From contig CALUXF010000001.1 of assembly GCA_944324655.1 (NCBI GenBank), positions 62,001 to 126,000 of the forward strand: a stretch of DNA of 64,000 bases, written 5' to 3'. This DNA is from Candidatus Avelusimicrobium aviculae (GTDB lineage: Bacteria > Elusimicrobiota > Elusimicrobia > Elusimicrobiales > Elusimicrobiaceae). Positions 4,948 through 26,373 of this stretch are shown one piece after another (position 1 is the first letter of the stretch; each line of letters starts with the position of its first letter). Position numbers and translations under genes: made by a program. The notes beneath the pieces are model-generated. The model did no database searches and was not told where the DNA came from. It worked only from the letters and a program-made list of their open reading frames with translations.

Positions 4948-6300
4948 ATGGGAAAATATTTTGGAACGGACGGTATCCGCGCCGTAGCGGGTACATTTCC
5001 GTTGACGAGTGATTTTATTGAAAAATTAGGCTGGTGCGCGTTGGACGAATTAAAAACATACGCCCAAGCCGAAGGTTTAAAAAACCAAGTAATTATCGCG
5101 CAAGATTCCCGCGCTTCCGGGCCTGCTATCCTGCAGGCTCTGCAAAAAGGCATCCGCGCCGCGGGCGTAAACGTTATCAGCGTAGGCGTGGCGCCTACCC
5201 CGGCGGTAGCCAATATCGTTCGCCAAACGGGCAGCTTGTGCGGGGTGGTTATTTCCGCCAGCCATAACCCGGCGGAATTTAACGGCATTAAATTTTTTAC
5301 CAACCACGGTACCAAACTTCCCGAGGCGCTGGAAGCAAAAATAGAAGCCCGTATAGACGCGTGCGCGGCGCTTCCGGCCCCTAAAGCCCACTATCAAGAA
5401 GACGAAAGTTTAATTGATTTGTACGAGAATTTTTTAAAATCCACCGTGGACGCTTCTTTATTAAAAGGCACCAAAGTAGTGTTGGACTGCGCCAACGGCG
5501 CCAGCTATAAAATTGCCGCCAAAGTATTCCATGATTTAGGCATGGATTTGGTAGTTACCGGCGCCAAGCCGGACGGCACCAACATCAACCGCGGCGTCGG
5601 CGCGCTGCATACCCAGTTTATGCAGGATTTAACCGCCAAAGAAAAAGCCTATGCCGGTTTTAGTTTTGACGGAGACGCGGACCGCGTCATCGCTTCGGAC
5701 GAAAACGGCCGCCAGCTGGACGGGGACAATATCATCGCCTCTTCCGCCCTGTGTCTTAAGCAGGAAGGCCGCCTAAACGGCAACAAAGCCGTGCTTACCA
5801 TTATGGCTAACCTGGGCTGTATTAATTATTTAAAACAAAACGGCATTTGCGTGGAACTCACCAAAGTGGGGGATAAATACGTTTCGGAAGCGTTGGAAAA
5901 AGAAAACCTCTCTATTGGGGGGGAAACGTCCGGCCATATTATTTTTAGGGAGTTTTCCAACACGGGGGACGGTATCCTTTCCGCATTGCAATTTTTGCAA
6001 TGCGCCAAAAAATCCGGAAAGCCGTTAAGCTGGTTTGGCGATCAATGGAAAAAATATCCCAGTCTGTTGCGCGCGGTGGCGGTTTCTTCTAAGCCGGCGT
6101 TAGACACGCTGGAAGGTTTTTTGCCCGCGGTGTCTGAGTTGGAAAAACAAATGCAGGGCCGCGGACGCATTATTGTGCGTTACAGCGGCACGGAACCCAA
6201 ACTGCGTATTTTGGTGGAAGGGGAAGACGAGGCTTTGGTATCCCGTATCGCGCAAGAAGTGGAACGATTATATCTAAGCAAGACGGAGGTGCACTTATGA
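4948..6300 (+). CDS. glmM: Phosphoglucosamine mutase
   Basis: Converts glucosamine-6-phosphate to glucosamine-1-phosphate for UDP-GlcNAc, peptidoglycan and LPS. 450 residues, normal for GlmM. It begins GKYFGTDGIRAVAG, the family N-terminus. The phosphoserine loop SASHNP has the active Ser near 105, the metal loop is DGDADR, and the C-terminal phosphate-binding motif is RYSGTEPK. The ATG at 4948 is chosen because it matches the family N-terminus and has AAGGA upstream. glmS lies two genes downstream, so the hexosamine pathway is grouped here. pdxJ begins inside the last codons. Confidence 0.96.
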   Translation: MGKYFGTDGIRAVAGTFPLTSDFIEKLGWCALDELKTYAQAEGLKNQVIIAQDSRASGPAILQALQKGIRAAGVNVISVGVAPTPAVANIVRQTGSLCGVVISASHNPAEFNGIKFFTNHGTKLPEALEAKIEARIDACAALPAPKAHYQEDESLIDLYENFLKSTVDASLLKGTKVVLDCANGASYKIAAKVFHDLGMDLVVTGAKPDGTNINRGVGALHTQFMQDLTAKEKAYAGFSFDGDADRVIASDENGRQLDGDNIIASSALCLKQEGRLNGNKAVLTIMANLGCINYLKQNGICVELTKVGDKYVSEALEKENLSIGGETSGHIIFREFSNTGDGILSALQFLQCAKKSGKPLSWFGDQWKKYPSLLRAVAVSSKPALDTLEGFLPAVSELEKQMQGRGRIIVRYSGTEPKLRILVEGEDEALVSRIAQEVERLYLSKTEVHL

Positions 6301-22426: not shown

Positions 22427-23890
22427 ATGAAAAAAGTTGCCGTTTTGTTTGTGGCTGTGTTTTTCCCGGTGTTTTTATTTGCTAAAACCACGGTTATTTA
22501 TCACACCAGCGATACCCACGGTTTTTATTACCCCAAAGACGGACGGGGCGGCTTTGCCGCGTTAGCCGGGCTTTTACAGCAGGAAAAACGCCCCTATTTA
22601 TTGTTGGACTCGGGCGATTTTGCCAACGGCACCGTGGAAGCCAAAAATTCCCAAGGCGTAAAAAGCGTACTGTTAATGAATGCGGTGGGGTATGACGCTT
22701 CTACCTTGGGCAACCATGAATTTGATTTTAAGGACCCCGCAGTGGAGCCTATGCTGCGCGCGGCGGCGTTTCCTATTTTGTCCGCCAATTTTGTAGAACG
22801 CAAAAGCGGTACCCAGCCGGATTATTTACAGGCGTACCGTATTTTTGACGTGGACGGCGTAAAATATGCCGTCATTGGCCTAGGGCACGAATACCCCACC
22901 AACGATACGGAACAATACAAAATTTTAAAAACCTCCAAAGTGTTAAAAGAAGTGTTAGAAGAAGTAAAAAAACAAAACCCGGACGTGGTGGTTTTGTTGG
23001 ACCACAACTCTATTGCCGATGACAAGCACGGCAAGGATTCGGGATTACTCAAATTAGCTTTAAAACACAAAGAAGATATTGATATTGTGCTGGGCGGGCA
23101 TGCGCATAAAATCATTCAAAATGAATACCACGGAGGTATTTTGTTTGTGGAAAGCGGTTGCTATTTGCAAAACGTAAGCCGCATTACGGTGGAAACGGAC
23201 GATAAAACCGGCAAATTGGTGTCCGCCAAGTCAGAGTTAATTCCGTTAGATACGCAAAAAACCGGCCTGTACGCCCCGGTGGCCGCCCTGGCGGAAGCGT
23301 TAAAAGAACCGGGCATGGATAAAGTCTTGGGAACGGCGCAAGCTAAGTTATCGCGCTCGCCGGTTAAAGGAAACGAGGGAGACTCTCCCCTTAACAACTG
23401 GGTGGCGGATATTTGCCGCGATTACAGCGGCGCCGAAATATTTATACACAATAACGGCGGCACCCGCGTTGATTTGGAAAAAGGCACCGTTACCAAGCGG
23501 GATCTGGTCAACATGCACCCGTTTGGCAATACCATTACCAATGTAAAGGTAAGCGGCAAATTTTTGGAAAAATTTGTAAAGTTTGGCTTGGCACCGCGCA
23601 ATTTGTTTTCTTATTCCGGTTTAAAAATTGAATACAAACTGCGCAAAGGAAAAGTACAGGATTTAAAAATTTGGGTAAACGGCAAACCGCTGGATAAAAA
23701 CGCTACCTATATTGTGGGAACCAATTCCTACATCGCGGGCGGCGGCAGCGAAGGCTGGATGTTTAAAGAAATTGAAGATAAAGATAAAAAACAAGTAGGG
23801 GACGACAGCATCCAGGAAATTATGGAAGAAGCCATAGAGGAGCAAAGCCCCTTAAAACCCGTTCCTACCGGGCGTATTATCATTAAATAA
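22427..23890 (+). CDS. Exported bifunctional metallophosphatase/5'-nucleotidase
   Basis: Periplasmic UshA-like enzyme that dephosphorylates nucleotides or related substrates. 487 residues with a signal peptide ending LFAK. The N-terminal metallophosphatase domain has DTHGF, GNHEFDF, LDHNSIADD and GGHAHK, so all metal ligands are present. The C-terminal 5'-nucleotidase domain has NNGGTR and a substrate-stacking region with FSYSGLKIEY. AGGGAGG ribosome site. The neighbouring gene 4 bases downstream is a divergent, apparently inactive paralogue. Confidence 0.9.
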   Translation: MKKVAVLFVAVFFPVFLFAKTTVIYHTSDTHGFYYPKDGRGGFAALAGLLQQEKRPYLLLDSGDFANGTVEAKNSQGVKSVLLMNAVGYDASTLGNHEFDFKDPAVEPMLRAAAFPILSANFVERKSGTQPDYLQAYRIFDVDGVKYAVIGLGHEYPTNDTEQYKILKTSKVLKEVLEEVKKQNPDVVVLLDHNSIADDKHGKDSGLLKLALKHKEDIDIVLGGHAHKIIQNEYHGGILFVESGCYLQNVSRITVETDDKTGKLVSAKSELIPLDTQKTGLYAPVAALAEALKEPGMDKVLGTAQAKLSRSPVKGNEGDSPLNNWVADICRDYSGAEIFIHNNGGTRVDLEKGTVTKRDLVNMHPFGNTITNVKVSGKFLEKFVKFGLAPRNLFSYSGLKIEYKLRKGKVQDLKIWVNGKPLDKNATYIVGTNSYIAGGGSEGWMFKEIEDKDKKQVGDDSIQEIMEEAIEEQSPLKPVPTGRIIIK

Positions 23891-23893
23891 GGT

Positions 23894-25387
23894 ATGAATA
23901 AAAAAGTTTTTTTATGCGGTTTATTTGCGAGTTGTGTGCTGTTGGGCGGGTGCTTTAAAAAAGACGCCAAAACGGTGGATATTTTTTATACATCGGACAT
24001 ACAAGGCTTCTTTTGGACCCGCCCCGAACCCCGATTCGGCAACCGGGACGTGGGCGGCTACGCCGTATTAAAAAACTTTTTGGAAAAACAAAAACAGCCT
24101 TATTTATTGTTGGACGGCGGAAACTGGTTCAGCCAAACGCCGGAGGGACTTCTTTCCAAGGGGGAATTTTTGCCCCGGCTGGCGGGGTCTATCCCGTATA
24201 CGGCGGCCGCGGTGGCGGATAAAGATTTGGTTTTCGGCTGGCCTTCTTTGCGCCAAATTATCCAAAAAATGCCGTATCCGTATATCATTTCTAATTTGAC
24301 CATAGACGGCAAAAACCCTTGGCCCACCCACGATTATTTAATACGGGAAGTTAACGGCGTAAAAGTAGGTTTATTTGCTTTGTTGGACCCTAAACCGGTA
24401 AACACCACCCACCGCTTGACCGGCATGAAAGCCACGGACCCGGTAGCTGCCGCCAAAGAAATGAGCGAGCGGTTAAAAGAAAAAGGAGTGCATGTGGTGG
24501 TGTTGTTGAGTTCGGTGGGTTCCCCGGAAAAAGAAGGGGTGAGTGACGCCACTTTGGCGGAAGAAGCCCCCGCCATAGATTTAATTTTAAGTTCTAACAT
24601 GGACCGGGAAAACGCCGAAACGGACAAAATCAACAAAACCTTTATTGTTTATCCGGGCGCCAAGTTTGACAGTTTGGGCCGCATCCGTTTAACGTTTGAT
24701 AAAAACAACCAGCTAAGCAATATGGATTTTGAAGACATTTTACTGGCTAAAGACACTTTTGGGGAGGACACCCAAATCGCTTCCGCCACGGATACGCTAC
24801 GCAAAGAAACCCAGCATAAAATGAACGCGCGGGTAACTTCCGCCCAAGAAGAAATAAAAGGCAATTTGCATGGGGAATCCAGCCTGGGCAATATTTTAAC
24901 GGATTGTTTGCATAAATGGTCCCGCCTAGACGGAGCCGTTTTAAATGCAGACTCTATACGCGCTTCCCTGCCGGCCGGGCGCATCAGCGAATATGACGTT
25001 TACCGCATGTACCCTTACAGCGACGCCGTTACCTTTGTTACCATCAAAGGACGGGATTTGAAAAAAGCGCTGGAAGCTTCTTTGGCGGCCAAAGACAATT
25101 TTCCTCAAATATCTGGCATGAAAGTTTGGTATAACGCTTCGGATAAAGAGGCCCCCGCAATCACCCGCATTGTTTTTAACGGCGGGCGCGTATTGCGCCC
25201 CCAGGAAACTTACCGCATAGCAGTGACGGACCACATCATGGCCGGCGGTTTTGGACATGATGAATTTATTAACGCGTTGGAATTTAAAAATACATTTGTG
25301 GAAGCCCGCCAGATTATGCGTTCCTGCCTGATTAAATACAGAGAGCTGGACGTACCCCCTCTGGGCCGCTGGCAAAAGGAAGATTAA
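23894..25387 (+). CDS. Lipoprotein paralogue of 5'-nucleotidase, metal site degenerate
   Basis: 497 residues. Signal peptide with lipobox LLGGC (Cys near 20), so it is probably membrane-attached. The fold follows the UshA pattern of the upstream gene: FYTSDIQGFFW corresponds to YHTSDTHGFYY, and LLLDGGNWF to LLLDSGDFA. The metal-binding residues are missing: the DxH becomes DxQ, the GNHE motif is absent, and the GGHAH motif reads SSNMDREN. The C-terminal nucleotidase domain is better kept (LNADSIRASL, DHIMAGGFGHD). It is likely a catalytically dead binding protein or partner. dusB overlaps its stop. Confidence 0.85.
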   Translation: MNKKVFLCGLFASCVLLGGCFKKDAKTVDIFYTSDIQGFFWTRPEPRFGNRDVGGYAVLKNFLEKQKQPYLLLDGGNWFSQTPEGLLSKGEFLPRLAGSIPYTAAAVADKDLVFGWPSLRQIIQKMPYPYIISNLTIDGKNPWPTHDYLIREVNGVKVGLFALLDPKPVNTTHRLTGMKATDPVAAAKEMSERLKEKGVHVVVLLSSVGSPEKEGVSDATLAEEAPAIDLILSSNMDRENAETDKINKTFIVYPGAKFDSLGRIRLTFDKNNQLSNMDFEDILLAKDTFGEDTQIASATDTLRKETQHKMNARVTSAQEEIKGNLHGESSLGNILTDCLHKWSRLDGAVLNADSIRASLPAGRISEYDVYRMYPYSDAVTFVTIKGRDLKKALEASLAAKDNFPQISGMKVWYNASDKEAPAITRIVFNGGRVLRPQETYRIAVTDHIMAGGFGHDEFINALEFKNTFVEARQIMRSCLIKYRELDVPPLGRWQKED

Positions 25388-26373
25388 TGAATTTTATCCG
25401 CCCGCTTAAAATAGCCGGAGTTACCTGCGCCAATAATTTGGTATTGGCGCCCATGGCCGGGATAACGGATTCCCCTTTTCGCATTTTATGTTTGCGGGGC
25501 GGGGCGGGGCTTGTTTGCGCGGAAATGGTTTCCGCACACGCCCTGCATTACGGCAACGCGCGCAGCGGGAGAATGCTTCAGGTATCTGCTAAAGAGCACC
25601 CCGTTTCCATGCAAATTTTTGGTTCAGACGCGCCCACCATCGCCCAAGCCGCCCGCAACGCCCAGGCGGCCGGGGCGGATATTGTGGATTTAAACGCCGG
25701 CTGTCCCGTTAAAAAAATAAACAAGGCGGGGGCAGGCTGTGTACTGATGAAAGACCCGGACCATTTAGCCCGTCTGCTGGAAGCGGCGGTGAAAGCCGTC
25801 AGCATACCGGTTACGCTTAAAACGCGTATTGCGTTAAACCATAAAGAATTTTTGGGGGCCCGGTTGGCGTATTTGGCGCAGGAAGCGGGCGCGGCGGCTG
25901 TGGTTGTGCACGCGCGCGCCGCGGTGGACGTGCACAGCGGCCCGCCCAATATAGAAGCGCTGGCCCAGGTGTGCGCGGCGGTAAAAATACCTGTTATCGG
26001 AAACGGCGGCGTGCTGAACGCGCGGGACGCAAAGAATTTTTTTCAAGCGGGTTGCGCCGGCGTGATGATTGGGCGCGGGGCCGTGGGCAACCCGCTTATT
26101 TTCCGGGATATAGCCAATGAACTGCAAGGCCTGCCCGTTACCAGCCATACCCCTGCCCAGCGTTTGCAAACCTATTTGGCGCTAATAGAAGAAAACGTGG
26201 CCCATTATGGGGAGCGCATTGGCATTAACCGCAGCCGCAAAACGGCCGGGTATTGGATAAAGGATTTCCCCAACGCGGCCGAAGTGCGGGGCCGATTTGT
26301 ACGCCTGGATTTGCTGGAGCAGGTGCAAAGCCTGTTTAAAGAAGTGCTGGCCTCTTTACAGCCGGCAGCGTGA
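25387..26373 (+). CDS. dusB: tRNA-dihydrouridine synthase
   Basis: FMN enzyme reducing uridine in the tRNA D-loop. 328 residues. N-terminal LAPMAGITDSPFR, the catalytic Cys in NAGCPVKKI, then VTLKTRIA, IGNGGV and IGRGAVGNPLIF for FMN phosphate binding. This is the DusB-type pattern. The ATG overlaps the stop of the upstream lipoprotein gene by one base. Confidence 0.94.
   Translation: MNFIRPLKIAGVTCANNLVLAPMAGITDSPFRILCLRGGAGLVCAEMVSAHALHYGNARSGRMLQVSAKEHPVSMQIFGSDAPTIAQAARNAQAAGADIVDLNAGCPVKKINKAGAGCVLMKDPDHLARLLEAAVKAVSIPVTLKTRIALNHKEFLGARLAYLAQEAGAAAVVVHARAAVDVHSGPPNIEALAQVCAAVKIPVIGNGGVLNARDAKNFFQAGCAGVMIGRGAVGNPLIFRDIANELQGLPVTSHTPAQRLQTYLALIEENVAHYGERIGINRSRKTAGYWIKDFPNAAEVRGRFVRLDLLEQVQSLFKEVLASLQPAA

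What the first reader, a model, noticed from the sequence alone, without database searches (positions are those of the whole stretch)
23894..25387. Lipoprotein copy of 5'-nucleotidase with the metal site erased
Next to an intact UshA-like enzyme, this paralogue keeps both domains but has DxQ for DxH, no GNHE and no GGHAH. The change from soluble to lipid-anchored and the loss of all main metal ligands suggest a new role, such as a nucleotide-binding receptor or a regulator of the active enzyme.
Basis: partly seen in the sequence, partly recalled or inferred. Interest (0 to 1): 0.55.

Follow-up and report, generated by a model that had tools for sequence, protein, structure and literature searches.

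The report
Lipid-anchored dead twin of a nucleotidase
A bacterial gene next to a nucleotide-cutting enzyme makes a membrane-tethered copy that has lost the cutting site yet has been kept for a very long time across a whole bacterial order, so it probably now works as a helper or holder rather than as an enzyme.

Summary
The ORF at 23894-25387 is a predicted lipoprotein with the full two-domain UshA/CD73 fold (AlphaFold2 mean pLDDT 92.6). Only 1 of 7 core metal/catalytic residues remains (Asp35).

It is not a local oddity. In 82 distinct relatives from the same order, nearly always the second gene of a tandem pair, none keeps more than 4 of 7 core residues and 81 keep at most 2. All 103 upstream or single copies keep 7 of 7. 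The dead copies form one clade, so the loss is old. They are under strong purifying selection (dN/dS 0.045-0.081).

In the window's genus the C-domain pocket is rebuilt but nearly invariant (Arg-Tyr-Asp-His). In the sister family that pocket drifts freely. What nearly all share is the anchor, the fold, a Cys pair, an EFxN motif and the place behind an active enzyme. I favour a membrane-anchored non-catalytic partner of the soluble enzyme; binding is inferred, not shown.

Extra: in the sister family the next gene is an AphA-type phosphatase that has also lost its nucleophile (27 of 27). Two unrelated phosphatases in one operon have become pseudoenzymes.

The parts
22427..23890 (+). g1: intact soluble UshA-like 5'-nucleotidase (487 aa), all metal and catalytic residues present
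   Evidence: Metallophos 54 bits and 5_nucleotid_C 106 bits; D29,H31,D64,N96,H97,H193,H225,H227; AF2 pLDDT 95.5, best solved match 2z1a Z 37.8
23894..25387 (+). g2: lipoprotein pseudo-nucleotidase (497 aa); starts 3 bases after g1 stop
23894..23953 (+). lipoprotein signal peptide, lipobox LLGGC, Cys20 at 23951-23953
   Evidence: sequence; the same in relatives
23996..24004 (+). D35-I-Q37 in place of the DxH metal motif
24113..24124 (+). DGGN77 in place of DSGD (metal-bridging Asp lost)
24212..24232 (+). VADKDLV in place of the GNHEFD region (catalytic Asn-His and Asp lost; Lys110 at the His position)
24512..24514 (+). Ser207 at the H217 position
   Evidence: alignment
24590..24604 (+). SSN235-M-D237 in place of GGHxH
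24905..24907 (+). Cys338, one of a conserved Cys pair (putative disulfide with Cys478)
   Evidence: both Cys in 74 of 82 dead copies and 0 of 84 active paralogues of the order
24959..25024 (+). C-domain ligand pocket: Arg356 (R410), Tyr375 (F429), Asp377 (N431); with His447 (F498) at 25232-25234
   Evidence: R 38/38, Y 38/38, D 38/38, H 36/38 in the genus
25280..25294 (+). E463-F-K-N-T motif specific to the dead clade
   Evidence: E463 in 80 of 82, F464 in 79 of 82
25325..25327 (+). Cys478, partner of Cys338
25387..26373 (+). dus-like gene overlapping the g2 stop by one base; follows g2 in the window's family
   Evidence: the function name is recalled from the sequence, not tested

Best explanation
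g2 is an ancient, selected pseudoenzyme: a UshA-family protein that lost its dimetal centre and catalytic Asn-His, carries a lipid anchor, and is made next to its soluble active sister. Most likely it works as the non-catalytic membrane-anchored partner of that sister: it holds the nucleotidase at the envelope and/or modulates it through its C-domain, and in the window's family it may also bind the substrate or product in its retained pocket. Shown: loss of residues, intact predicted fold, lipobox, single origin, purifying selection, order-wide pairing. Inferred: loss of activity, lipidation, physical contact with the sister, effect on it.
For: Residue loss in 82 of 82 downstream copies against 103 of 103 intact other copies. 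One clade for the dead copies, 100/99, and one for the order's active copies, 100/99 (ligand columns masked). 78 of 82 lie directly behind an intact copy: 76 by script, 2 more (L081, L111) by coordinates; 3 are cut by contig ends and 1 (L107) has a stub. The pair stays together although its neighbours differ: nifU-nifS-g1-g2-dus-rplM-rpsI in family f1, rplM-rpsI-g1-g2 in f2. Lipobox in 77 of 82 dead by pattern, 4 more by eye, 1 truncated; pattern hits in 6 of 103 active. dN/dS of g2 0.045-0.081 in 10 pairs. AF2 model pLDDT 92.6. Clade-specific conservation lies mostly in the C-domain: C338, W342, D446, E463-F464, N466, C478. In the sister family a second operon member is also a dead phosphatase, which suits a multi-subunit assembly better than three separate enzymes.
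Against: No complex was modelled or measured. The mirror-tree test did not single out the pair: partial correlation g1-g2 given dus 0.515, but g2-dus given g1 0.662 (48 loci). In G197 g2 survives without an adjacent g1, although an intact g1 lies on another contig. Shared operons often do not mean contact. The conserved C-domain residues could be only structural.
Confidence: 0.45

Rival explanations
1. Ligand-binding lipoprotein: g2 binds a nucleoside, nucleotide or UDP-sugar in the C-domain pocket and acts as receptor, buffer or substrate-delivery protein, independent of contact with g1.
For: In the window's genus the pocket positions are R 38/38, Y 38/38, D 38/38, H 36/38, among the most conserved columns, with systematic changes from the active R-F-N-Y/F.
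Against: In family f2 the same pocket is lost and drifts (R410 position more variable than 67% of columns, F429 93%, N431 69%), so it cannot be the function shared by the order.
Confidence: 0.3
2. Envelope structural protein with a role unrelated to nucleotides or to g1, using the old fold as a scaffold.
For: Strongest order-wide conservation is outside both old sites (EFxN, Cys pair); extreme divergence in genera g8 and g14.
Against: It is kept behind an active nucleotidase in 78 of 82 cases.
Confidence: 0.15
3. Altered enzyme: the new set D35, Q/E37, N77, D109, N235, D237 is all oxygen donors and might bind Ca or Mg for another reaction.
For: D41 position D 38/38, H252->N 37/38, D84->N 33/38 in the genus.
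Against: The catalytic His is gone in 82 of 82; its position is Lys in 35 of 38 of the genus, which would put a positive charge into the site; in f2 the D41 position is Arg in 19 of 30.
Confidence: 0.08
4. Decaying pseudogene or assembly artefact.
For: In G125 the g2 ORF is split in two (L085).
Against: Open and selected elsewhere: dN/dS 0.045-0.081; strong matches in 61 of 61 genus genomes, some in fragments.
Confidence: 0.01

Closest known systems
UshA / CD73-type 5'-nucleotidases (solved: 2z1a, 3ivd/3ive, 1ush, CD73 entries)
   Same: Two-domain fold over the whole length (6vc9 Z 35.5, rmsd 4.5, 459 residues; 3ivd Z 34.4, rmsd 8.6, 461 residues); C-domain Pfam family PF02872
   Different: No dimetal ligands, no catalytic Asn-His; base-stacking Phe replaced; Cys338-Cys478 pair; EFxN motif
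Membrane-bound bacterial 5'-nucleotidases with a lipobox (Vibrio parahaemolyticus, passages of PMC8475336)
   Same: UshA family with lipoprotein-type signal
   Different: Those are described as active enzymes; here the anchored copy is dead and the active copy is soluble
UshA_like_PCGU (NF041198, UshA-like (seleno)protein)
   Same: 85 bits over the N-terminal part, one of the better NCBIfam hits
   Different: Below its cut-off of 275 bits; g2 has no PCG motif in its sequence
Pseudophosphatases that partner active phosphatases (inactive myotubularins; abstract start of PMC3688503)
   Same: Works-like analogy: a catalytically inactive paralogue pairs with an active member
   Different: Unrelated fold, eukaryotic; analogy only

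Membership tests
UshA / secreted 5'-nucleotidase family | Two-domain fold (metallophosphoesterase + 5_nucleotid_C) | tested here: met
   AF2 model pLDDT 92.6, whole-length matches; Pfam hit only for the C-domain
UshA / secreted 5'-nucleotidase family | Dimetal ligands D41, H43, D84, N116, H217, H252, Q254 | tested here: not met
   Only D41 kept
UshA / secreted 5'-nucleotidase family | Catalytic His117 with Asp120 | tested here: not met
   Lys110 and Val113
UshA / secreted 5'-nucleotidase family | C-domain nucleotide pocket (R410, F429, N431, F498) | tested here: inconclusive
   R kept, others Y, D, H; invariant or nearly so in the genus, lost in f2
UshA / secreted 5'-nucleotidase family | 5'-nucleotidase activity | not testable with these tools
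   needs protein
Bacterial lipoprotein | N-terminal signal with lipobox and Cys | tested here: met
   LLGGC, Cys20; pattern in 77 of 82 relatives
Bacterial lipoprotein | Lipidation and membrane sorting | not testable with these tools
   needs labelling or fractionation
Pseudoenzyme (conserved non-catalytic paralogue) | Loss of catalytic residues conserved among orthologues | tested here: met
   82 of 82 downstream copies
Pseudoenzyme (conserved non-catalytic paralogue) | Purifying selection after the loss | tested here: met
   dN/dS 0.045-0.081
UshA_like_PCGU (NF041198) | Score above curated cut-off and PCG[U/C] motif | tested here: not met
   85.1 bits against 275; motif inferred from the family name, absent from the g2 sequence
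AphA class B acid phosphatase (downstream gene X of family f2) | Homology to AphA | tested here: met
   Profile against 1z5g E 3.6e-16; TIGR01672 hit below its equivalog cut-off (32-55 bits against 195.8)
AphA class B acid phosphatase (downstream gene X of family f2) | HAD nucleophile Asp in DxDxT and Mg ligand in GDSD | tested here: not met
   Nucleophile Asp->Glu in 27 of 27, Mg-ligand Asp lost in 27 of 27 of f2; all eight positions intact in 4 of 7 outside the order

The most novel reading that the evidence does not exclude
The order carries an envelope phosphatase assembly built from a single catalytic subunit plus dead ones: a lipid-anchored pseudo-UshA and, in one family, a membrane-anchored pseudo-AphA, recruited from two unrelated phosphatase folds in the same operon. 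The class's single UshA-AphA operon would be the ancestral two-enzyme state, turned stepwise into one enzyme with non-catalytic subunits.
Probability: 0.25. Interest if true: 0.75.

Novelty: new variant of a known kind. Interest (0 to 1): 0.55.

Why it matters
Bacterial pseudoenzymes of this kind are, to my knowledge (recalled), little documented, and here one can follow the loss: an intermediate (L052) keeps 4 of 7 core residues, the rest at most 2, with the active sister beside it as a built-in control. If the partner role is right, it shows how a bacterium turns a soluble periplasmic nucleotidase into a membrane-held one without altering the enzyme. The parallel loss in an AphA-type neighbour makes the question 'why keep two dead phosphatases beside a live one' directly testable.

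Tried and rejected
Rebuilt metal site: an all-oxygen set exists in the window's genus, but the Lys at the catalytic His position and the Arg at the D41 position in f2 speak against it. Order-wide nucleotide receptor: rejected because the pocket drifts in f2. Mirror-tree as evidence of contact: inconclusive. Duplication inside the order against an older one: not settled; dead copies group with f7/f8 single enzymes at 72/79 support, but a clade with the order's active copies is not rejected (p-AU 0.26). The Cys pair shared with 8 of 19 non-order enzymes fits the former. Coordinates of the models were not on hand, so distances, buried surfaces and the disulfide could not be measured. Structure jobs are single-chain, so no complex was modelled. 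Rows left out: duplicates by identical core (150 to 136 sequences); from X, 5 of 39 hits that I judged to be frame-shifted shadow ORFs. The tree used 72 of the aligned sequences, chosen by me; the structure alignments A2 and A3 used 70 and 64. Literature searches; none listed a paper on a dead UshA lipoprotein or on this gene pair, but the library holds open-licence papers only. Of papers I saw search listings, and passages of PMC10454023 and PMC8475336; nothing was read whole.

Full report
What is there. The window comes from an uncultured Elusimicrobiales-type bacterium (nearest named records are Elusimicrobiales MAGs). Gene g1 (22427-23890) and gene g2 (23894-25387) are two UshA-family proteins in tandem, 26% identical. 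g1 ends with TAA at 23888-23890 and g2 starts 3 bases on; the g2 stop overlaps the start of a dus-like gene by one base, so the three look like one transcript. g1 has an ordinary signal peptide and all ligands. g2 has the lipobox LLGGC and a ruined site.

The site. Mapped on E. coli UshA (residue numbers recalled), g2 reads Asp, Gln, Asn, Asp, Lys, Ser, Asn, Asp at D41, H43, D84, N116, H117, H217, H252, Q254. Only D41 survives. Pfam's Metallophos model no longer sees the N-domain, yet AlphaFold2 with a 70-row family alignment gives a confident whole-length model (pLDDT 92.6, pTM 0.87) that aligns along its full length with solved 5'-nucleotidases: CD73 6vc9 Z 35.5, rmsd 4.5 over 459 residues; E. 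coli c4898 nucleotidase 3ivd Z 34.4, rmsd 8.6 over 461 residues. The large rmsd of most rows probably reflects a different domain angle (inference). The g1 model matches closed-form enzymes more tightly (2z1a Z 37.8, rmsd 3.6).

How widespread. The search with g2 found matches in 61 of 61 genomes of the genus and in 86 of 149 genomes of the phylum. A profile of seven dead copies of the second family (f2) plus L052 matched in 120 of 121 genomes of the order; these counts include active copies, which the profile also hits. I fetched the neighbourhoods and aligned 185 distinct family members plus E. coli UshA. Of these, 103 keep all seven core residues (54 in family f1, 30 in f2, 19 outside the order) and 82 do not (52 in f1, 30 in f2). 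The 82 are the downstream copies; no upstream or single copy is among them. Residues retained of 7: f1 0 (4 copies), 1 (47), 4 (1); f2 0 (20), 1 (5), 2 (5). The exception with 4 is L052, from a deep genus of f1: it keeps D41, H43, D84 and H217 but has lost Asn-His and H252, so it looks like an intermediate. Of the 82, 78 sit directly behind an intact copy (76 by script, L081 and L111 by coordinates), 3 lie at contig ends, and in L107 (G197) only a stub of g1 remains, with an intact g1 on another contig. Two good-quality genomes that seemed to lack the dead copy (G145, G157) also lack a match for the neighbouring ribosomal gene rpsI, so the locus may be missing from those assemblies. In G184 a lipoprotein ORF is again found at the right place, but I did not align it.

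History. On a 72-row tree with the active-site columns masked, the dead copies of f1, f2 and L052 are one side of a branch (100/99) and the active copies of the order another (100/99). The duplication is therefore at least as old as the order. Whether it is older is open. The Cys338-Cys478 pair is in 74 of 82 dead copies, in 0 of 84 active copies of the order and in 8 of 19 active enzymes outside it, all of families f7/f8, which hints that g2 is the ancestral lineage and g1 the newcomer.

Selection. In five close species, g2 has dN/dS 0.045-0.081 over 10 pairs; g1 0.018-0.060 and dus 0.046-0.074 in the pairs with the window's genome (some of the other g1 and dus rows carry a few pre-start codons). 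g2 is not decaying.

What is conserved instead. Order-wide, though not in every copy: the lipobox, Cys338, W342, D446, E463-F464, N466, R472, Cys478. In the window's genus (38 dead copies) the C-domain pocket is R, Y, D, H at R410, F429, N431, F498 in 38, 38, 38 and 36 of 38, and D41 is kept in 38 of 38. In f2 these same positions mostly belong to the more variable part of the protein, except F498, which is Ser in 25 of 30. So the pocket has a role in the window's lineage but is not the common denominator.

A second dead phosphatase. In f2 the next gene downstream of g2 is a ~195-residue protein X with an apparent N-terminal membrane helix. Pfam gives nothing at E<=0.1 for five f2 members, but a 20-row profile matches AphA class B acid phosphatases (1z5g, E 3.6e-16), and TIGR01672 is the best NCBIfam hit in 4 of 4 proteins scanned, below its cut-off. 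X also follows the single UshA in seven loci of families f5, f7 and f8. Catalytic positions (AphA numbering recalled): nucleophile Asp is Glu in 27 of 27 f2 members, the motif Thr is lost in 27 of 27 and the Mg-ligand Asp in 27 of 27; outside the order 4 of 7 have all eight checked positions intact and 3 have lost the nucleophile. In the window's genus X is absent: 25 genomes searched, 3 with weak short hits only (E 0.0007-0.003).

Mechanism. Shown: an old, selected pseudo-nucleotidase in a conserved pair, predicted to be lipid-anchored, with the fold intact in the model. Inferred: that it is inactive; that it meets g1; that it tethers or tunes g1. I prefer the partner reading because the two genes stay together while their neighbours change, because anchored and dead go together against soluble and active, and because the operon of the sister family adds a further dead phosphatase. 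Against it, the mirror-tree test is inconclusive and no complex was modelled.

Comparison with what is known. Lipid-anchored UshA-type enzymes are described in Vibrio, as active enzymes (PMC8475336, passages). A survey of ushA-like genes marks Elusimicrobiota as without them (PMC10454023, passages); the present data show intact copies in several families of the phylum. I found no paper on a dead UshA lipoprotein in the ten searches listed under Tried and rejected. The nearest works-like cases are eukaryotic pseudophosphatases that pair with active ones (listing).

Noticed in passing
Family f2 loci, e.g. L069:1914-2555 (-), L066:2387-3010 (-), L088:5170-5757 (+); outside the order L058:2726-3484 (-): AphA-like gene X downstream of g2 (f2) or of the single UshA (f5, f7, f8). 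Nucleophile Asp->Glu in 27 of 27 f2 members; intact in 4 of 7 outside the order: a second pseudo-phosphatase in the same operon.
   Followed up: partly
L052:2874-4499 (+): Downstream copy in a deep genus of family f1 that keeps D41, H43, D84, H217 but has lost Asn-His and H252: an intermediate stage of loss.
   Followed up: partly
L107:3708-3863 (-), genome G197: Only a C-terminal stub of g1 lies upstream of an intact g2; a full g1 is on another contig (G197:C256).
   Followed up: partly
L024:928-2448 (+) and many genus genomes: A third tandem UshA copy upstream of the pair; the L024 one reads GNHEFA, with the Asp120 position changed to Ala.
   Followed up: no
L092:2184-3863 (+), L093:1822-3486 (-): An unlinked UshA-like gene in some genus genomes with all core residues intact.
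   Followed up: no
L085:4194-5171 and 5137-5703 (+): g2 split into two ORFs in G125: a frameshift in assembly or a true break.
   Followed up: no
rplM-rpsI neighbourhood, loci L022-L116: UshA-type genes lie near rplM-rpsI in families f1, f2 and some of f7, an old linkage of a periplasmic enzyme with ribosomal protein genes.
   Followed up: partly
Phylum, against PMC10454023: That survey lists Elusimicrobiota as lacking ushA-like genes; intact two-domain copies are present here, perhaps too diverged for its probes.
   Followed up: no
G090 (L044, L084): Single contig of 1,643,562 bases, from recalled size probably the cultured Elusimicrobium minutum Pei191; it carries the pair.
   Followed up: no
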